Of a DNA stretch of 24,499 nt, positions 4,933-20,656 are shown one piece after another. The translations under genes were made by a program, and so were the position numbers. The DNA comes from a virus, in the IMG/VR virus record IMGVR_UViG_3300042890_000642, positions 1-24,499 of that record; one strand, given 5' to 3'. Below the pieces are notes generated by a model. That model saw nothing but the letters and a program-made list of their open reading frames with translations, had not been told where the DNA came from and did not search any database. How positions within the stretch are numbered: position 1 is the stretch's first letter; every line of letters starts with the position of its first letter.

Positions 4933-5148
4933 TTAAAGTTCGATGCCTTGTGCGATGTGGTTGCGTAGTCGTGAGATTACCGACTCGGCTTGTTTCATTG
5001 TTGCTTTGAGTGTGTCTAGTTCTTGTGCTAACGATTCAGCTGCATCCATGTAGCGGTCACGTTCTTCTTGTAACGCTTCGTTGGTAACAGCAAGTGCGTC
5101 TACTCGATCCTGCCAGTATTCAATTTCAAACTCTGTGTCGTTGCTCAC
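4933..5148 (-). CDS. Small coiled-coil protein
   Basis: 71 residues from the GTG at 5148, chosen because AAGGA lies about 7 bases upstream; an ATG at 5196 has no such site. After an acidic opening (SNDTEFEIEYW) nearly the whole chain is a heptad-type helix (VDALAVTNEALQEERDRY and on), ending IAQGIEL. It overlaps the end of the WhiB gene by 23 bases. Coiled-coil proteins of this size may be scaffolds or oligomerisation partners; the job is unknown. Confidence 0.6.
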   Translation of the reverse strand: MSNDTEFEIEYWQDRVDALAVTNEALQEERDRYMDAAESLAQELDTLKATMKQAESVISRLRNHIAQGIEL

Positions 5149-5413
5149 TGCGTATTCCTTTCCGTTGATGTGGTGATGTGCCACCCCATACCCCATAATC
5201 TATGTTGTTTACTAAAGCAAAGTCAAGGCATTCTTTTTTTACTTGGCATCTATCGCAGATTGCGCGGGCTTCACGCATCTTGATGTGGTTGATAGATATT
5301 TCTTCGATGTCCATGAAAAACAGCTCGGTTATTTCGCCTCGGCATTCTGCTTTGTTTTGCCAACCGAAGTCGTTGTCTTTTAGTTCGTTGATGAAGTTGT
5401 CGAGCAGGCTCAT
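5126..5413 (-). CDS. whiB: WhiB-family [4Fe-4S] transcription regulator
   Basis: 95 residues from MSLLDNF at 5413, set by an ATGA overlap; this is the usual WhiB length. Four cluster ligands are visible, C24, C53, C56 and C62 (CxxC then Cx5C), followed by the WhiB turn GVWGG (74-78) and a basic C terminus (HQRKGIRSEQRHR) that would touch DNA. WhiB proteins bind an iron-sulfur cluster and the host primary sigma factor. They are confined to actinobacteria and their phages, so this gene is the best host clue in the window. It may redirect host transcription or autoregulate. Translationally coupled to a secreted lysozyme-like gene. Confidence 0.9.
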   Translation of the reverse strand: MSLLDNFINELKDNDFGWQNKAECRGEITELFFMDIEEISINHIKMREARAICDRCQVKKECLDFALVNNIDYGVWGGTSPHQRKGIRSEQRHRV

Positions 5414-5931
5414 TTCTGTGGATTCCATGGACTCCAGCCTGCCACATCGAACAGTAGTTTGCCAGCACGTAGGTTTGTTATCGGGTTCATTAGTTCCTCC
5501 TGGGTACATACTTTCATGCGGACACAGACAATTGCAAGTTTGGTTCGCTCAAAATCCCAGTTGATTCCATTGATCTGTAGGAGTCCGGTATCTGATGGAT
5601 GCGACATGGTTGCCATGCGAATCAGGTTGCAATCTTTGTCCACTACAGAGCCGCCGATACGGGTTGGGCATCCGCCGGATTCGCGTAGGATTATGTGACC
5701 TAGTTTCTTCCATGTGTGAGGTGGCCAGCCTGCTTCGGTAGCTAGTTCTGGTAGCCATGAGATGTCGCCGTGACGGAACACGATGGCAGTCTCAGATGCC
5801 CGCTCAGACGCACGGACAGCCACGCTAAGAGGTTCAAGGGTTGGCAAAGGGGCTTTGGCTGCTGAAGCGATGCTGCCGAAGGTAATAATCCCTACCATAG
5901 AAACGGCAAATAGCCGTACAAGGTTTCGCAT
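5410..5931 (-). CDS. Secreted lysozyme-fold (lytic transglycosylase-like) protein
   Basis: 173 residues from the ATG at 5931, preceded by TTGGAGAC. Residues 1-27 are a clear signal peptide (MRNLVRLF, hydrophobic core, then IASAAKA with likely cleavage after Ala). The mature part has the transglycosylase/lysozyme pattern: 'HIILRESGG' with candidate catalytic Glu 84, then 'DTGLLQIN' (114-121), and a final 'LRAGKLLFDVAGWSPWNP'. It would act on peptidoglycan outside the membrane. It is far from the lysis cassette and in front of whiB in the recombination operon, so timing may be early rather than terminal lysis. Alternative: an Rpf-like growth factor. Confidence 0.8.
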   Translation of the reverse strand: MRNLVRLFAVSMVGIITFGSIASAAKAPLPTLEPLSVAVRASERASETAIVFRHGDISWLPELATEAGWPPHTWKKLGHIILRESGGCPTRIGGSVVDKDCNLIRMATMSHPSDTGLLQINGINWDFERTKLAIVCVRMKVCTQEELMNPITNLRAGKLLFDVAGWSPWNPQK

Positions 5932-6072
5932 TAGTGTCTCCAATCATAGCAAAAAGGTCGGGTTCCTTACAGGTAAAGGGTTTTACCCCTAGTCCACCGC
6001 GATCAGACAATGGCTAGGGGACAACTACACGCGCCGGTTATGAGGGAGCGTACCCTTTATGTTGTTGTTACA
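5932..6072 (-). promoter_or_regulatory. 141-base intergenic region with hairpin and possible extended -10
   Basis: On the minus strand it contains CCCCTAG and CTAGGGG about 23 bases apart, and a GGTAAA-ACCC-TTTACC hairpin near 5970-5985. A later TTTTTGC-TATGAT reads as an extended -10 box (TGCTATGAT) with no good -35. That box would start transcription at or next to the ribosome binding site of the secreted lysozyme gene. The stem is not directly followed by a U-run, although CCTTTTTG comes 15 bases later. A weak attenuator or separate promoter for the lysozyme/WhiB pair is possible. Confidence 0.35.
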
Positions 6073-10790: not shown

Positions 10791-11318
10791 TCATACGGCT
10801 TTCGCAGCAACGAAGGCTGCAACGGCAGGTGGGACTTGGTTTCCTTGTGTGTAGCGGATGTGCCACGGCTCTGATTGGACTTCGTGTGAGAAGCCGTAGA
10901 GGTGTTCGTTGGCTAGCATCCATGCAAGTCTAGGACCTGATGCTGTGGACACATCGACTGCGATACCGAGGTTATGCTGGCTTTTGCCTGGGGTTGCCAA
11001 CATCGCCATACCTTTTTTGAGATACCAAGTTTTACCTTCAAACGTTTTCGTGCTTTGACCCACGATTGGTTCTACTTGGTAGCGTGTAAGGAAACCTTTT
11101 TTTTGGCTCTCGTAATCTCGGTATGTGTCGCCTGCCGATGTCGGTGTCAGTTTGATACCGACTTTGTCTGCGGCTGCAACCATCGCTTCCCACGCATCAG
11201 CAGCACAATGATGCAACGTACCACCAATGGTTTTGCGTAGTTTGTCTGCGGCTAGTTTGCCTGGGACAGCGTTCTTTAGATGGTCACAAAGTTTGACCGG
11301 CACAACTGGATATGCCAT
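10791..11318 (-). CDS. M15 (VanY-type) DD/LD-peptidase endolysin
   Basis: 175 residues. The metal-site motifs 'SQHNLGIAVD' (113-122; SxHxxGxAxD form, H115 and D122) and 'EPWHIRY' (150-156; E150, H153) are both intact, and 'YRDYESQKKGF' (66-76) is the usual upstream helix. There is no signal peptide, as expected for an endolysin released through a holin. It should cut peptide cross-bridges in actinobacterial peptidoglycan. It is flanked by small membrane proteins on both sides. Single domain: no separate cell-wall-binding part seen. Confidence 0.9.
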   Translation of the reverse strand: MAYPVVPVKLCDHLKNAVPGKLAADKLRKTIGGTLHHCAADAWEAMVAAADKVGIKLTPTSAGDTYRDYESQKKGFLTRYQVEPIVGQSTKTFEGKTWYLKKGMAMLATPGKSQHNLGIAVDVSTASGPRLAWMLANEHLYGFSHEVQSEPWHIRYTQGNQVPPAVAAFVAAKAV

Positions 11319-11322
11319 AGTT

Positions 11323-11559
11323 TTACTTGGCTGGTTTTGCGCCGAACGCGCTGTTGATTTCTTCCATTGTCAACTTGCCGTCAAGTGATGCGGCGGCGAG
11401 CTTCTGGATTACGGCGGCACATGCGGCGAAACCGGCAAGAGCTGCTGCCTTAAACACGCTTAGTTCTGGAGCAAGAATTGCACTACCGCCAACGATAGCC
11501 AATGCTGAGGACAGGAACACTGCCACGATACGACCGAGGATGTCTTGTGCTTTCTTCAT
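11323..11559 (-). CDS. Holin-like membrane protein (78 aa)
   Basis: 78 residues starting MKKAQDILGRIVAVFLSS. Two hydrophobic segments are visible, about 11-31 (IVAVFLSSALAIVGGSAIL) and 35-54 (VFKAAALAGFAACAAVIQKL), with a charged end (DGKLTMEEINSAFGAKPAK). Size, topology and position immediately before the endolysin gene fit a class II holin. Its start overlaps the preceding membrane-protein gene as ATGA. Which of the three membrane proteins forms the lysis pore cannot be decided by reading. Confidence 0.7.
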   Translation of the reverse strand: MKKAQDILGRIVAVFLSSALAIVGGSAILAPELSVFKAAALAGFAACAAVIQKLAAASLDGKLTMEEINSAFGAKPAK

Positions 11560-11723
11560 TCTGATTCCTTTGTGCTAAGAGTTAAAGCTGCGTGTAAAAC
11601 CAATGATACACCAACCACCCAGATCGCTTGCCGGAGTGTAGGGCCAGACAGGGTGATCAAGACTAGACCTGTGCCTGCGTAGGTCCATGCGTTGTCTTTG
11701 ATGAGGTTGGTGAGGCGTTTCAT
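11556..11723 (-). CDS. Small two-span membrane protein (55 aa)
   Basis: 55 residues: MKRLTNLIKDNAWTYAGTGL and on. Hydrophobic segments at about 15-27 (YAGTGLVLITLSG) and 33-48 (AIWVVGVSLVLHAALT), charged ends. Overlaps the upstream large secreted gene and the downstream holin-like gene by 4 bp each. May be a holin/antiholin partner. It is too short to place in a family. Confidence 0.65.
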   Translation of the reverse strand: MKRLTNLIKDNAWTYAGTGLVLITLSGPTLRQAIWVVGVSLVLHAALTLSTKESE

Positions 11724-13153
11724 TGTCGTCTCATTCTAGTACCTGCTGCTGTGAGGGTTGTCCCTGCTGCGATGGCGATGAGGGTTCGGCGTTCTCCTAC
11801 AGGGATGTTTGAGCCTGTTGGCACATAGTCGTCGAATCCGCCGAAGATGTCTATGGTTTGTTCGAACACTTCTTGGACTGCGAGGGGTGCGTCTTGGATT
11901 GCTGCTGTGAGTTCGGCTATCTGTGTTTCGTCTAGTTGTGCGACTTCGATGGTTTCAAAGATTTCTGTGGCTTGTTCTTCGGTGATGACAGCCAACACTT
12001 CGGGGTTGGTGGCGAGGGCTTCGGCTTGGTCGGCTGTTACTGCGGTGGCAAGGATTTGGGTGATGAGTGCTACTGCTTCTTCGGGGGCTAGGTTTTCGAT
12101 TGTGTCCACAACGGTGTCGAATTGTTCTTCGGTGAGGGGGATGTCTGTGTCGCCAGCGTCTAGGAGGGCTTCTACGAGTTCGGGTGATAATTCCTCAATA
12201 AGTTCCATTGGGGGCATTAGAGGGGGTTCTGGTGCGTCTAGTGGCATGTCTGGTGGCAAAGGCATCATGTCGGGTGGCAGTGGCATGGTGTCTGGTGGCT
12301 CTGGTAGTAGCCCGACAAACGGTAGCGTATCGGGTGGATAAACAGTAGGGTACGTGTCGGGAGGGAGATTTAATGTTTCTGGTGGATATGTTTCAATCTC
12401 TGGTAGTACGAGGGGTGGTATCTCTGGCATGGCTGGCGGCTCTATTTGTGGTAGAGGAACCGTTGCTGGCGGCTCTGGCATTGTTGGCTCTACTGGGATT
12501 GTGGCGATTGTTTGAAGTGTCGTAGTAGTCAAGTTTGGTGGTACATCCACAGTCGTAGAGGGTGCAATAGTAGAAGTGGTCGTCGTTGTAGTCGTGGATG
12601 TTGTTGTGGATTCCCATGAGGTTGTTGTCTCCTGAATAGTGGTAGTCGTATCTGGGATAGTGGTATTTGGAACCGTGGTTGTAGTGGTTGTTAATCCATC
12701 CCAAAGAGAAAGATTGCTGATAGTTAAGTGCCCTGGCTGGCAGCAAGAGTCTGTCGAGTACTGACGAAACGTAAAGATGTCACTTTCTTGAACAGGTATT
12801 GACATTGAACCTGTCGCATTGTTTTGTTGCGTAATCAACGTGTAAACCCCATTGATACCGTACTGTGGTGGGTCGTATGACCACCCGTCATTGGTCTGGT
12901 ATGTCCAAGTAAAATCTATTGTGTCCACATCCGCAGGGATTGTGGTTTCAATCTTCACCCAATGCGCTTGACCGCTGCAACCACCGTAGTCAGGTCCGTG
13001 AAGGGTAATCGAAGTGCCAACTATTTCAACAGAACCGTTGCATGCTTGCGATTGGCTGTATGTCCAGTCTCCTGTAACGTCTGCTTTGGCGGGTTGTGCG
13101 AGTAGCGCGAGTATTGCTACTGGAACAAATATCAGCCAGCGTGAGCCACGCAC
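11720..13153 (-). CDS. Large secreted Thr/Pro-rich surface protein, probably membrane-anchored
   Basis: 477 residues from a GTG at 13153, two bases after the previous stop; an in-frame TTG four codons upstream is the alternative. Residues 1-24 are a signal peptide (RGSRWLIFVPVAILALLAQ, likely cut after PAKA). Residues 25-152 look like a beta-sandwich with Cys at 38, 59, 137, 138. Residues 155-213 are a Thr-rich linker, 220-317 a Pro-rich stalk with PPDTM/PPDMM repeats, and 318-438 an acidic helical part with several T/S-x-E-Q-led helices. Residues 457-471 form a hydrophobic stretch flanked by Arg, a probable C-terminal anchor. It lies between fibre and lysis genes. A host-envelope or virion surface role is inferred; no homologue is named. 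Confidence 0.7.
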   Translation of the reverse strand: MRGSRWLIFVPVAILALLAQPAKADVTGDWTYSQSQACNGSVEIVGTSITLHGPDYGGCSGQAHWVKIETTIPADVDTIDFTWTYQTNDGWSYDPPQYGINGVYTLITQQNNATGSMSIPVQESDIFTFRQYSTDSCCQPGHLTISNLSLWDGLTTTTTTVPNTTIPDTTTTIQETTTSWESTTTSTTTTTTTSTIAPSTTVDVPPNLTTTTLQTIATIPVEPTMPEPPATVPLPQIEPPAMPEIPPLVLPEIETYPPETLNLPPDTYPTVYPPDTLPFVGLLPEPPDTMPLPPDMMPLPPDMPLDAPEPPLMPPMELIEELSPELVEALLDAGDTDIPLTEEQFDTVVDTIENLAPEEAVALITQILATAVTADQAEALATNPEVLAVITEEQATEIFETIEVAQLDETQIAELTAAIQDAPLAVQEVFEQTIDIFGGFDDYVPTGSNIPVGERRTLIAIAAGTTLTAAGTRMRRQ

Positions 13154-13155
13154 AT

Positions 13156-14007
13156 TTATGCCCAACTAACGTTTCCAGAACCAGCAGTCAACGTAGCCCT
13201 TTTATATCCACCAGAAGCAGCCGACTCTGTACCAGTCAAACCAGCACCAATCGTGATAGTGAACGAATCTGCGTAACGCAAGATAACAACACCACTACCA
13301 CCAGCATTACCTGAACCAGACGAACCTGAACCTGAACCACCACCACCCGTGTTTGCTGTTCCAGCGTTGCCTGTGCCGTCACTACCAGTTCCACCACCGC
13401 CGTTACCACCAGCGTTTGTTTGACCGTTGTTACTGTTTGTTCCACCACCACCACCACCACCACGGTAAACAGAAGTTCCAGTGATCGAAGAAGCAAGACC
13501 GACACCGCCAGCACCGTTGTTGACTTCGCTGCTACCAGAAGCACCTACACCACCAGCACCACCACCACCGCCACCGCCACTGAGGTTTGTTGACGAGTTA
13601 TATGAACCACGACCACCCGCATAGCCTTGATTGGCTGTTCCCGAACCACCCGTGAACCATGTGCTATCACCCGAACCAGCACCGCCACCTGAACCGCCAG
13701 TAGAACCATTAGCAAGACCAGTAGCACCAGCACCACCAGCAGCCGCAACAACAGTAGAGAAAGTAGAACTTTGAGCAGAACCGCCGACAACAACAGAATA
13801 GTTTACGTTAGATGAAACAGTTAACGGTGTCTCAGCACTTGCCCCACCACCAGATGATTCCCCAGAAACAGAGTTACGGTATCCACCAGCACCACCGCCG
13901 CCACCTGCGTACCCACTGGCCGTAGCACCACCAGCACCGCCACCACCGATAACAAGATAGTCAACAGTTAACTCACCAACAGGAACCACAGAAGCAAGAA
14001 TTTGCAT
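13156..14007 (-). CDS. Glycine-rich tail-fibre-like protein
   Basis: 283 residues from MQILASVVPVGELTVDYLVI at 14007 (TAATG overlap). The opening strand 'VDYLVIGGGGAGG' begins a long glycine-rich region with many GGGGGGG/GGSGGG patches, a domain typical of phage fibre tips. It ends 'SGVVILRYADSFTI' followed by a short beta part (LTGTESAASGGYKRA). Glycine-rich fibre domains form polyglycine-II bundles that contact receptors. A second gene of the same kind lies at 22.1-23.1 kb. Its downstream neighbour is the secreted protein. Confidence 0.75.
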   Translation of the reverse strand: MQILASVVPVGELTVDYLVIGGGGAGGATASGYAGGGGGAGGYRNSVSGESSGGGASAETPLTVSSNVNYSVVVGGSAQSSTFSTVVAAAGGAGATGLANGSTGGSGGGAGSGDSTWFTGGSGTANQGYAGGRGSYNSSTNLSGGGGGGGAGGVGASGSSEVNNGAGGVGLASSITGTSVYRGGGGGGGTNSNNGQTNAGGNGGGGTGSDGTGNAGTANTGGGGSGSGSSGSGNAGGSGVVILRYADSFTITIGAGLTGTESAASGGYKRATLTAGSGNVSWA

Positions 14008-14870
14008 TACGCGCTCAAATTGCCAACAGCCATCCAAGTATCCGCAGCAATCTGAACAACAGTTGCCACAGAATACTGACCTGTCAACTTCAACTTGTTA
14101 CCACTAGAACGAATCGTCACACCACTACCAGCAGTAATTGTTACCTGACCAGCACCAAGTTGCATAATGTTTATTTGGTCGCCAACAGCAAACGCAACAG
14201 ACGAATTAGGGGGAACGGTCAACGTCGAAGCAGAAGCATTAGTCATCGTCACAGTCTTATGTGCATCCAAAAGAACCGCCGTATAGGAAGTTCCAGTCTG
14301 GTTATTAAATGTCATGCCTTTTAGTTGACCTGAGCCAACAGACAATAACGCCAACTTATCCTGAGTTACGTTCGCATCCAAAATCTTTGCGGTAGTAACA
14401 GCATTAGAAGCAATACCACCAGCAGCAATCTGACCCCACGCAACACCATTAGTTGCAGAAGAATCAGCCAACAAAGCATAAGTGTTAGTACCAACAGCCA
14501 AACGATTCAACGCCGACCCAGAAGTAACCAACAAGTCGCCCTTAGTGGTCAGTTTTGATACAACCTCGTTAGCCTCATCCGCATCATTAGCCGTAAACAC
14601 CGGATAGATCGCCGCACCCGAAGCATGACTGCTTGCACTCGTATCATCCTGACCCCGAACCAAAGTAAGAGTCGAACCCGAAATAGTTGCACTGCACTTC
14701 TCCTCAGTTGAAGCACCTGGATCAATCACCACGTAAAACGAAACACCAGCAGACCCAGGCCAGCCAGTTGTGGCAGCCAAAGAACAGGTCGTATCGGTTG
14801 TGTTGATACCTGCCGTGATAGTTGTTGCTACCGCCGAACCTGAATACTGTCGTCGCGTAAAAGCTGCCAT
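14007..14870 (-). CDS. Tail-fibre/baseplate-like structural protein
   Basis: 287 residues, MAAFTRRQYSGSAVATTITAGI. Low-complexity Ser/Thr/Ala/Val beta composition, with phrases common in fibres: 'STLTLVRGQDDTSASSHASGAAIYPV', 'LTTKGDLLVTSGSALNRLAVGTNTYALLADSSATNGVAWGQI', and an end like 'VTITAGSGVTIRSSGNKLKLTGQYSVATVVQIAADTWMAVGNL'. The middle block is typical of phage fibre proteins that carry 'TTKGDLxxxxG...RLxxGxxGxxLxxds...GxxW'. Attached to the nozzle-like gene upstream and the Gly-rich protein downstream. Confidence 0.7.
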   Translation of the reverse strand: MAAFTRRQYSGSAVATTITAGINTTDTTCSLAATTGWPGSAGVSFYVVIDPGASTEEKCSATISGSTLTLVRGQDDTSASSHASGAAIYPVFTANDADEANEVVSKLTTKGDLLVTSGSALNRLAVGTNTYALLADSSATNGVAWGQIAAGGIASNAVTTAKILDANVTQDKLALLSVGSGQLKGMTFNNQTGTSYTAVLLDAHKTVTMTNASASTLTVPPNSSVAFAVGDQINIMQLGAGQVTITAGSGVTIRSSGNKLKLTGQYSVATVVQIAADTWMAVGNLSA

Positions 14871-18019: not shown

Positions 18020-18173
18020 GCTTCTTTGCGGCCTTCATGTTGTCAATCAAATTAGGGTACGGGCGACCAGCAGCTTTAGCCGAAGCCTTCGCAGCAGCCT
18101 TCTTCTTTGGGGACAACTTCTTAGATTTTTTTTTAGGGTTTGGTGTATCCCAAACTGCTTTAGGTTTCATCAT
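18012..18173 (-). CDS. Tiny Lys-rich protein with RPYPNLIDNM motif (53 aa)
   Basis: 53 residues: MMKPKAVWDTPNPKKKSKKL, then a Lys/Ala-rich helix, 'GRPYPNLIDNMKAAKKRG'. The closing 'GRPYPNLxDNM' motif is one I recall in small basic phage proteins next to DUF6321-like genes. Starts with an ATGA overlap after the glycosyltransferase. Third of a row of three very basic mini proteins; DNA condensation or virion packing is the likely theme. Confidence 0.7.
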   Translation of the reverse strand: MMKPKAVWDTPNPKKKSKKLSPKKKAAAKASAKAAGRPYPNLIDNMKAAKKRG

Positions 18174-19294
18174 GCCAATACTCCTGCGTTTAATAGGACA
18201 TCTCTGACATTTAACACTACACGATGCTTCATTCCTGGTAACAGTTCCACACGATGTTGACCGATGGTGGCTTGCACCCGTTTAGATACCTCAATTTCGC
18301 ATGTAGGTTCAAACGGTTTCCAAACCCCAGTAGACCTGTTGGTAGTTGGCTGAACGATCTGTAGCACTTGTTCGGCTGCTGTGTCCCAGTTAAACGCTGC
18401 TGTTTGTGGGGCTGTCAGGAACGCCTGACGACGGTACTTGTCACGTTTGTTGTATAAGTCTTTGATGGCTTCTGCTAATGCTTCTGCGTCTGGTTCATCC
18501 CAGTTGCCCATGTCCTGCCAAACACCTTTAGCGGTCGGGACACTGGTGGTTGGTATGCGATGGGTGGCAAGATCAGCGAACTCTCGATGCCCATGAGCGT
18601 TAGACAGGATCGTTGGGATACCCGCTGAGACAGCCTGCAACGGCATGAGACCGAACCCTTCACCACGGGACACCGACACAAACCCATCCATAGAACGAAC
18701 CAAATCACGTTCCTGTTCAACAGTTAACCATTCACGATGAATTACCACATTCGGGTAATCCAAGTTCTTTGGCGCAGACAGGTGAGGTGGCACAATCTTG
18801 ATATGCAGTTCAGCGTCAGGTAGCTGCAACTTGTTAAACACTTCCAGTACCACATCTAAGCCTTTGCGATACCACTCCGAACCGCCGCACATGATCCGGA
18901 ACTTACCATCAGGTTTGTTCTCAGATGGACACCAAACATCACGGTCAACGCCCAACGGGATCATATGAACATTGTCGTGGAATTGGGAGAACAAGTCATA
19001 GTTGTGCATAGATGGCACAATGATCGTTTCTATCAGCGGGATGTATTCATAAAACTGTGGTGGCAACCAGTTTGTTTCCCACATGGTTAAAACCGATACA
19101 CGCTGGTCATCAAACCAACCTGCGATCAGGTTGGGTCGTAACGCAAACATCACAGTTTCGGCACGGTCATCAAGTGTTACCTTTTCCGATAACGCTGTCT
19201 TCAACCCTTGCACCATTTTCCCGTAACCGATATGCGGGATGTTTACACCTTCAACACTTAAAAGTCGGGAAGTATCCCTGATTCTGCCTGCCAT
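18170..19294 (-). CDS. GT-B glycosyltransferase (GT4-like)
   Basis: 374 residues. The C-terminal nucleotide-sugar half is clear: 'LGVDRDVW' (114-121), 'RIMCGGSEWYRKGLDVVL' with Arg/Lys 143-144, and 'VSRGEGFGLMPLQAVSAGIPTI' (208-229) as the donor loop. E212 is present, but the second Glu of the usual EX7E is Gln 220. The N-terminal half has 'HIGYGKMVQGLKTAL', typical of the acceptor domain. It would transfer a sugar to phage virion proteins, DNA or host wall polymer; the position among virion genes favours a virion target. The last 60 residues form an extra beta domain (ISKRVQATIGQHRVELLPG-like). Confidence 0.75.
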   Translation of the reverse strand: MAGRIRDTSRLLSVEGVNIPHIGYGKMVQGLKTALSEKVTLDDRAETVMFALRPNLIAGWFDDQRVSVLTMWETNWLPPQFYEYIPLIETIIVPSMHNYDLFSQFHDNVHMIPLGVDRDVWCPSENKPDGKFRIMCGGSEWYRKGLDVVLEVFNKLQLPDAELHIKIVPPHLSAPKNLDYPNVVIHREWLTVEQERDLVRSMDGFVSVSRGEGFGLMPLQAVSAGIPTILSNAHGHREFADLATHRIPTTSVPTAKGVWQDMGNWDEPDAEALAEAIKDLYNKRDKYRRQAFLTAPQTAAFNWDTAAEQVLQIVQPTTNRSTGVWKPFEPTCEIEVSKRVQATIGQHRVELLPGMKHRVVLNVRDVLLNAGVLA

Positions 19295-19542: not shown

Positions 19543-19835
19543 GATATGTAACTCCCGTATCCTGCTGCTGTTAACGATGCTACCTCGGTAGCATCCACCT
19601 CAATGTCATGCCCACCGTAGTACACCTTTATCACGGTTGACATGTTAGACGGCTGGTTCTCTGTGTATGACAGGTCGGTTAACTGGTACACGTTACGGCC
19701 ACGCGCTGTTGGTTGGCGATGCCGAGCCAATCTGTTAGCAAGCCGTTGTTCTTCGGACAGACGGTTTCCTTTGATGTCAAAGTCAGCCAATACTGGGGTC
19801 ACAAAGTTGTCGGTTGGTGTACGAAATATTGCCAT
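19539..19835 (-). CDS. Virion-associated protein, paralogue of the C-terminal domain of the next upstream gene
   Basis: 98 residues. It opens 'MAIFRTPTDNFVTPVLADFD' and goes on to 'GRNVYQLTDLSYTEN', 'VIKVYYGGHDIEVDATEVASLTAAGYGSYIS'. The last 86 residues of the upstream protein show the same plan: 'HIFRVPYTYQYIGGYFNDLD', 'ARNLYKLTDNSYT', 'KLWHGGRDHFLTAAEQEELTADGFGAYIS'. This gene is therefore the stand-alone form of that domain, presumably by duplication. The end motif (YGGHD ... LTAAGYG-YI) is one I have seen in phage minor virion proteins. Role unknown. Confidence 0.7.
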   Translation of the reverse strand: MAIFRTPTDNFVTPVLADFDIKGNRLSEEQRLANRLARHRQPTARGRNVYQLTDLSYTENQPSNMSTVIKVYYGGHDIEVDATEVASLTAAGYGSYIS

Positions 19836-20656
19836 CAGGATATGTACGCTCCGAATCCGTCTGCTGTAAGTTCTTCTTGTTCTGCTGCTGTCAAAAAGTG
19901 GTCACGGCCACCATGCCAAAGTTTCTTTACTTGACCTAGATCACGTTGGTCAACAATAGTGTAACTGTTGTCGGTCAGCTTGTAAAGGTTTCTTGCTCGA
20001 ACATTACTTTTAATGTAGGAACCTAACCGGTTGGCTGCGTCAAGATCGTTGAAGTATCCGCCGATATATTGGTAGGTGTATGGCACACGGAAGATGTGCG
20101 ATTTGTCCCAGTTGGCTAAACCTGTTCCTTCTCCGCTACCTGTGCATGTTCTAAATAGGGCTCTTGCACTAACCGTAGCCGATGTTCCCTCGCCTTGACC
20201 CGACGCCGTACGGAGAAGCGTGACGACCCGTGACGCTGTTTGTGTGCCTGTGCCTGTGCCTGTAGCAGTGCGTGGTGCAACATGTAGTCCGAGTGTAGTG
20301 GCTGTTCCTACGCCTGCACCTGTGGCTGTGCGTACTTTGACAATTATTCGGTCTGCGGTTTGTGTTCCTGTGCCACTGCCTGTGGCTGTTCTGACTGGGT
20401 TGATGTTCCATTCGGCGGTGTCTGCGGCTGTGACTGTTCCTGAGCCGAAGGCTGTGCGTAGTATGCCGAGAACGATGCTGTTGTTGGATGTGCCTGTTCC
20501 TGTGCCTGTGGCTGTGGCGGTGAGGATGCTAAAAAAGTTTTGGGTGGCTGTTTGTGTGCCGAGTCCCGAACCTGTGGCGGTGCGTTCGATTGCTGACTGG
20601 TTGTAGATTGCCCCTGCTTGGTTGTAGAGGAATCCTGCTTGGTTGTAGGTAGTCAT
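19835..20656 (-). CDS. Repeat-containing virion/fibre-like protein with C-terminal YGGHD-type domain
   Basis: 273 residues. It begins with three 7-residue YNQAG-type repeats (residues 4-22), then eight repeats of 20-22 residues, each headed by RTATGSGTGTQTA or a variant, from about residue 25 to 188. The tail (188-273) is the domain shared with the next gene. Gly-Thr repeats of this type form stalks or extended beta sheets in phage fibres. It is placed in the structural region but target and structure are unknown. Confidence 0.7.
   Translation of the reverse strand: MTTYNQAGFLYNQAGAIYNQSAIERTATGSGLGTQTATQNFFSILTATATGTGTGTSNNSIVLGILRTAFGSGTVTAADTAEWNINPVRTATGSGTGTQTADRIIVKVRTATGAGVGTATTLGLHVAPRTATGTGTGTQTASRVVTLLRTASGQGEGTSATVSARALFRTCTGSGEGTGLANWDKSHIFRVPYTYQYIGGYFNDLDAANRLGSYIKSNVRARNLYKLTDNSYTIVDQRDLGQVKKLWHGGRDHFLTAAEQEELTADGFGAYIS
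20093..20584 (-). repeat. Eight tandem 60-66 base repeats inside the fibre-like gene
   Basis: Codons 25-188 of the gene at 19835-20656 form eight in-frame repeats with heads at residues 25, 46, 67, 89, 109, 129, 149 and 169. The head (RTATGSGTGTQTA and variants) is conserved while the tail varies. The DNA units are 60-66 bases. They are coding repeats, not a CRISPR array. Copy number could change by recombination. Confidence 0.85.

What the first reader, a model, noticed from the sequence alone, without database searches (positions are those of the whole stretch)
11720..13153. Secreted, multi-part surface protein between fibre and lysis genes
Seen: signal peptide, Cys-bearing beta domain, a Thr-rich linker of about 60 residues, a Pro-rich stalk, an acidic repeat-like helical domain and a C-terminal hydrophobic anchor flanked by Arg. 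This is the plan of an actinobacterial cell-surface protein, not of a virion part. Possible roles: superinfection exclusion, control of lysis timing or spanin-like wall attachment, surface masking, or adhesion of infected cells.
Basis: partly seen in the sequence, partly recalled or inferred. Interest (0 to 1): 0.65.

Follow-up and report, generated by a model that had tools for sequence, protein, structure and literature searches.

The report
Phage-made lectin displayed on host
This phage of freshwater actinobacteria carries a gene for a sugar-binding-type protein that is probably displayed on the surface of the cell it infects, held there by an anchor module also found in bacterial surface proteins, and related phages swap its binding head like an interchangeable tool bit.

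Summary
The gene lies on the MINUS strand (13153..11720, GTG start, 477 aa): signal peptide, beta head, Thr linker, Pro stalk, acidic helical domain, 'YVPTGSNIPVGERR' motif, transmembrane (TM) helix. The head is predicted as a jelly roll resembling carbohydrate-binding modules. In relatives the same stalk and anchor carry a PA14 head instead; the tree needs at least ten head exchanges (four forced by well-supported branches). The gene is half of a unit: in nearly every relative whose downstream sequence is held it is followed by a coupled gene for a 53-56 aa membrane hairpin, which is FUSED to it in phage DSL-LC01. Chromosomal surface proteins (RCC1, DUF285, DUF4082 ectodomains) of one actinobacterial family carry the same helical-domain/TM/hairpin module, fused or split; in 201 genomes the two halves co-occur 14 of 14. 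Best reading: a late-expressed lectin displayed on the infected host, probably occluding receptor glycans (superinfection exclusion, protection of progeny from debris); adhesion is the main rival. The role is inferred. The anchor matches no Pfam or NCBIfam family; the hairpin is PHROG 29041, function unknown.

The parts
11720..13153 (-). Surface lectin-like gene, 477 aa, GTG start (alternative TTG at 13165)
   Evidence: relatives start at the equivalent Met/Val
13082..13153 (-). Signal peptide, residues 1-24 (cleavage AKA|D)
   Evidence: hydropathy maximum; A-x-A conserved in relatives
12695..13081 (-). Head type A, residues 25-153: CBM-like beta jelly roll; replaced by PA14 in relatives
   Evidence: AlphaFold pLDDT 87; Foldseek CBM35/CBM61-like; head swap
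12488..12694 (-). Thr-rich linker, residues about 154-222
   Evidence: sequence
12215..12487 (-). Pro-rich stalk, residues about 223-313
   Evidence: sequence; linker and stalk together evolve fastest
11855..12214 (-). Acidic all-helical domain, residues 314-433, no known fold match
   Evidence: AlphaFold pLDDT 84; no PDB fold hit better than E 0.32; shared with bacterial surface proteins
11786..11827 (-). Conserved motif YVPTGSNIPVGERR, residues 443-456
   Evidence: Y, P, G, S, V, RR invariant in alignments A1/A3/A6
11735..11800 (-). Transmembrane helix TM1, residues about 452-473, with Arg-rich tail
11556..11723 (-). TM55: 55-aa membrane hairpin partner, ATGA overlap with the lectin stop; homologous to the C-terminus of fused forms
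   Evidence: PHROG 29041 E 3e-37; dN/dS about 0.03-0.11
11323..11559 (-). TM78: next small membrane protein, candidate holin, ATGA overlap with TM55
10791..11318 (-). VanY/M15-type peptidase, presumptive endolysin
   Evidence: Pfam PF02557 E 7.9e-16; synteny
13156..14037 (-). Gly-rich fibre-like gene upstream; its stop ends 2 nt before the lectin start
   Evidence: Pfam PF21722 E 5.6e-11
14007..14870 (-). Fibre-like virion protein gene whose 3' part lies in the exchange block (about 13141-14435)
   Evidence: PHROG 23837; similar to Gordonia phage tail fibre/minor tail proteins; break points

Best explanation
The gene makes a phage-encoded, host-type cell-surface protein. It is secreted by its signal peptide, spans the wall by a Thr linker and Pro stalk, and presents a glycan-binding-type head outside the infected cell. 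It is retained by a three-helix membrane module: its own TM1 after the YVPTGS-RR motif, plus the hairpin supplied by the translationally coupled 55-aa partner TM55. In phage DSL-LC01 and in several chromosomal surface proteins the same three helices are one polypeptide; here the chain is split in the presumed cytoplasmic loop. The operon fibre-lectin-TM55-TM78-VanY implies late expression. Most likely role: the head binds envelope glycans of the infected cell and blocks adsorption of further phages and of released progeny to the dying cell and its debris; head exchange would track host glycan variants. Shown by sequence: architecture, partner gene, fusion, bacterial homologues, head exchange. 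Inferred: topology, glycan binding, timing, receptor blocking.
For: Architecture. PA14 heads in sister alleles: Pfam PF07691 E 1.8e-5, above cutoff; profile match to solved PA14 domains of RsgI3, E 4e-12; the DDG motif occurs in all 55 PA14 heads checked. CBM35/CBM61/VesC-like fold for head A. Fusion in DSL-LC01. Bacterial chromosomal proteins with variable ectodomains and the same anchor; both halves co-occur in 14 of 14 genomes, adjacent, hypergeometric p about 1e-19 without correction for kinship. Head exchange at least 10 times, 4 forced, with 93.5% DNA identity over 7.8 kb on one side of the swapped head. Conserved place before TM78/VanY in most relatives. Strong purifying selection. No tyrosine integrase in 24 records. 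Precedent for receptor blocking by a lytic phage's surface protein: T5 Llp (PMC9586334).
Against: No ligand, localisation or phenotype is known. Head type does not covary with the gene immediately upstream (partial r 0.05; 119 of 999 permutations as high), so shared specificity with the adjacent gene is not shown; that gene is not always a fibre. Known exclusion proteins are usually made early, whereas this gene sits in a late-type operon. Arg residues on both sides of TM1 make its orientation uncertain. Head A was not found in 201 bacterial genomes, with no positive control. SH-aLRT supports on a quick tree are limited.
Confidence: 0.5

Rival explanations
1. Phage-encoded adhesin: the displayed lectin sticks infected cells to other cells or particles, raising the chance that progeny meet new hosts, in the manner of a flocculin.
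For: PA14 occurs in adhesins (profile hits to a Lap adhesin and ice-adhesin PA14 domains, weak: E 0.009-0.07); the long Thr/Pro stalk suits reaching outward; the bacterial proteins with the same anchor have adhesin-like ectodomains.
Against: Late expression shortly before lysis leaves little time; no aggregation data; hosts inferred to be planktonic.
Confidence: 0.27
2. The C-terminal YVPTGS-RR/TM/Arg tail is a cleaved sorting signal read by an undescribed transpeptidase-like enzyme, with covalent attachment to the wall; TM55 assists it.
For: Tripartite layout at the extreme C-terminus in the window; invariant Y, P, GS, RR.
Against: In DSL-LC01 and 8 of 14 bacterial genomes the chain continues into a cytoplasmic-type linker and hairpin, unlike sortase substrates; no LPXTG; no NCBIfam sorting-signal hit.
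Confidence: 0.13
3. Lysis-related protein (spanin-like or lysis timing), with TM55 as a holin or antiholin.
For: Lies directly before TM78 and VanY; TM55 is a small membrane protein.
Against: TM55 homologues are fused to or paired with chromosomal RCC1/DUF285/DUF4082 surface proteins; no lipobox; in L104 the module lies near the terminase gene without VanY.
Confidence: 0.07
4. Virion component, such as a receptor-binding accessory of the tail.
For: Follows fibre genes and shares their exchange block in part; head folds resemble tail-protein modules.
Against: Signal peptide, TM helix and a host-type membrane anchor; chromosomal homologues.
Confidence: 0.03

Closest known systems
Cryophage T9SS-CTD cargo proteins (PMC7468147)
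   Same: Phage-encoded surface/secreted proteins using a host-type display signal; one carries PA14; cargo varies between otherwise near-identical variants; superinfection exclusion proposed there too
   Different: Bacteroidetes T9SS C-terminal domain; here an actinobacterial membrane module with a separate hairpin gene, and a lectin head swapped on a constant stalk
Phage T5 Llp (PMC9586334) and Streptococcus phage TP-J34 Ltp (PMC3952083)
   Same: Phage-made host-surface proteins that exclude further phages; exclusion proteins of this kind also stop adsorption to lysed fragments
   Different: Those are lipoproteins without lectin heads; no receptor block has been tested here
PA14 domain family (Pfam PF07691)
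   Same: Head of sister alleles (L040, L013, L058) with the conserved DDG motif
   Different: The window's own head is not PA14; it is a CBM-like jelly roll without a Pfam match
Surface proteins of one actinobacterial family (L059, L135-L139, L247, L252)
   Same: Signal peptide, Thr linker, same helical domain, YVPxGS-RR, TM1 and hairpin
   Different: Other ectodomains; a cytoplasmic-type linker; fused in 8 and split in 6 of 14 genomes
PHROG 29041
   Same: TM55 and its relatives are members (E 3e-37)
   Different: Listed only as unknown function; partner relation not described there

Membership tests
PA14 domain family | Pfam PF07691 match at or above cutoff | tested here: not met
   No match in the window protein; met by sister allele L040, 25.0 bits against cutoff 24
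CBM35-like carbohydrate-binding modules | Beta jelly-roll fold | tested here: met
   Foldseek E about 4e-4, TM-score about 0.4-0.5: same broad fold only
CBM35-like carbohydrate-binding modules | Sequence family match and sugar binding | tested here: inconclusive
   No Pfam match; binding not testable with these tools
LPXTG sortase substrates | LPXTG motif, hydrophobic stretch, basic tail at the C-terminus | tested here: not met
   Motif is YVPTGSNIPVGERR; hydrophobic stretch and basic tail present; no NCBIfam hit
T9SS C-terminal-domain cargo | T9SS type A/B sorting domain | tested here: not met
   No Pfam or NCBIfam hit
Spanins | Lipobox lipoprotein and/or bridge to an outer membrane | tested here: not met
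   Signal ends AKA|D without Cys; homologues are non-lytic surface proteins
Receptor-blocking superinfection-exclusion proteins (Llp, Ltp type) | Lipoprotein anchor | tested here: not met
   No lipobox
Receptor-blocking superinfection-exclusion proteins (Llp, Ltp type) | Blocks phage receptor or injection | not testable with these tools
   Needs an adsorption assay
Actinobacterial helical-domain/YVPxGS-RR/hairpin anchor module (unnamed) | Helical domain + YVPxGS-RR + TM1 with adjacent or fused hairpin | tested here: met
   Alignments A3 and A4; the genome search with them
PHROG 29041 (TM55) | Profile match | tested here: met
   E 3e-37 over 1-55

The most novel reading that the evidence does not exclude
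The lectin tail and TM55 are substrate and dedicated membrane receptor/insertase of an undescribed actinobacterial surface-display system, which phages of several lineages have captured and split into two genes to mount interchangeable lectin heads on infected cells. The near-invariance of TM55 (T-L-S-G-x-T, H) would then reflect a specific docking function rather than simple anchoring.
Probability: 0.28. Interest if true: 0.8.

Novelty: new variant of a known kind. Interest (0 to 1): 0.58.

Why it matters
It gives a testable meaning to a common 'unknown' gene pair in freshwater phages (at least 553 viral stretches in one scan) and to PHROG 29041, links it to an uncatalogued surface-anchor module of bacteria, and shows lytic-type phages swapping lectin heads on a constant host-type anchor. 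If confirmed, it is a route by which phages repaint infected cells late in infection, and a tool for surface display in actinobacteria.

Tried and rejected
Whole-window megablast against phages: no match. Pfam, NCBIfam and PHROGs on the protein: nothing meaningful. PDB by sequence: only fluorescent proteins at E 0.03 or worse, taken as chance. PDB fold search with the helical domain: no hit better than E 0.32. L060 (Oxalobacteraceae) was a short chance match; its genome has none by profile. Head versus immediate upstream gene covariation: no support. Head A in 201 genomes: none. Integrase in 24 phage records: none. TM55 by tblastn in public phages: none. Plasmids: none. Literature: no paper holding PA14 domain + phage + freshwater + Actinobacteria. 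Two genome-search runs failed for a wrong handle and one script for a missing file.

Full report
OBSERVATION. The window is a complete 24,499-bp virus record, itself probably a fragment of a phage genome. The gene is on the minus strand, 13153..11720; the + strand reading of the same stretch is full of stops. The GTG at 13153 is the likely start, since relatives begin at the equivalent residue (M/V-R-x-S-R-W-L-I). The upstream fibre-like gene stops 2 nt before this start, the lectin stop overlaps the TM55 start (ATGA), and TM55 overlaps TM78 in the same way, so fibre, lectin, TM55 and TM78 look translationally coupled, followed by a VanY-type peptidase (PF02557).

HEAD. The 129-aa head has Cys and aromatic residues conserved through 18 relatives. 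AlphaFold gives a confident 10-strand sandwich (pLDDT 87, pTM 0.85). Foldseek matches are broad jelly rolls: CBM35, CBM61, a hyaluronan-binding module, VesC, MAM and Eph ligand-binding domains, E about 1e-4 with TM-scores of about 0.4-0.55. This supports a ligand-binding jelly roll but not a specific family. In sister alleles the head is instead PA14: Pfam E 1.8e-5 in L040, above cutoff, with sub-threshold matches in L013 and L058; a 12-sequence profile hits solved PA14 domains of RsgI3 at E 4e-12. The DDG motif, which I recall as the calcium/sugar site of PA14 lectins, is in all 55 PA14 heads checked. L045 and L046 carry a third, shorter head.

HEAD EXCHANGE. On a tree of C-domain plus TM55 (89 rows) the head label needs 10 changes, 4 of them forced by well-supported branches. 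The clearest case: the window and L013 share 93.5% DNA identity over 7.8 kb downstream from inside the linker and 87.6% over 5 kb upstream, but the head and the preceding fibre block (about 13141-14435) are replaced. Head type did not covary with the gene just upstream once C-domain relatedness was allowed for (partial r 0.05, 119 of 999 permutations as high); that gene is not always a fibre, so the test is weak.

PARTNER GENE AND FUSION. In the viral relatives whose downstream sequence is held, a 53-56 aa gene with the motif W-T-x-A-G-T-G-M-V-L-I-T-L-S-G-x-T follows, by ATGA overlap or within about 20 nt; the script found no such gene in a few cases, at least some of them at contig ends. It belongs to PHROG 29041, function unknown. 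In Actinomycetia phage DSL-LC01 a 944-aa protein has the same helical domain, YVPTGSSIDVGTRR, a hydrophobic stretch, a Ser/Gly/acidic linker and then a C-terminus homologous to TM55. The host of that metagenome-assembled phage was predicted as Actinomycetia (PMC10611076).

BACTERIAL HOMOLOGUES. One of the two matches from the genome scan was real: a chromosomal protein of an Actinomycetota MAG (L059) with the fused layout. In 395 genomes of its class 6 match, in 201 of its family 14, and in 397 across the phylum only 2 strongly, both already known. The hairpin profile finds 16 of 201, including all 14, each on the same contig 42-259 nt beyond the helical domain. It is in the same reading frame in 8 genomes and a separate small gene in 6. 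The ectodomains are RCC1 repeats, DUF285 repeats or DUF4082. Neighbours such as a cytochrome P450, an MFS transporter and an aldo/keto reductase (identified by reading their sequences) look chromosomal rather than prophage. The tool names no taxa; that the family is in Acidimicrobiia is my guess from the Thr-rich style.

MECHANISM. The simplest reading is a three-helix anchor: TM1 plus a hairpin, one chain in some proteins and two in others, with the break in what would be the cytoplasmic loop. dN/dS is lowest in TM55 (0.03-0.11), low in the head (0.05-0.28 among type A where calculable) and C-domain (0.13-0.34), and highest in the linker and stalk. A displayed glycan-binding head on a lytic-type phage (no tyrosine integrase in 24 records) most plausibly blocks receptors, for which T5 Llp is the precedent; Cryophage's variable T9SS cargo, including a PA14 protein, is the closest published analogue and its authors also suggest superinfection exclusion. 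Adhesion is the main rival. A spanin or holin role is disfavoured by the bacterial homologues and by L104, an unrelated phage group with the module near its terminase gene.

LIMITS. No SignalP, no multimer prediction, no glycan or expression data. The quick tree reports SH-aLRT only. The co-occurrence p-value ignores kinship between genomes. Foldseek TM-scores around 0.5 do not establish homology.

Noticed in passing
window 5410-5943 (-): 177-aa protein with an apparent signal peptide and lysozyme/transglycosylase-like motifs (ILRESGG, TGLLQIN) but no Pfam hit; conserved in relatives at 40-96%. Possible second, secreted lytic enzyme.
   Followed up: partly
window 18170-19294 (-): GT4-type glycosyltransferase among virion genes, 66-99% identical in relatives.
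   Followed up: no
window 19835-20656 (-): Protein built of TATGSGxGTxTA-like repeats, member of PHROG 23524 of unknown function.
   Followed up: no
window 5126-5509 (-): WhiB-like regulator by sequence inspection, consistent with an actinobacterial host.
   Followed up: no
L045 and L046, head region: Third, short head type (YRTWTCTTGSDSWQMQQPE...) on the same stalk and anchor.
   Followed up: no
L104 7068-8677: Same lectin+TM55 pair in an unrelated phage group near a terminase-like gene, preceded by an oxygenase-like 182-aa gene.
   Followed up: partly
L254 894-2386: Bacterial contig with a phage-like split pair: 360-aa secreted protein with TM and Arg tail overlapping a 147-aa hairpin gene, but with a different head and no helical domain match.
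   Followed up: partly
window 11323-11559 (-): TM78, a candidate holin conserved at 50-100% next to VanY in most relatives.
   Followed up: no
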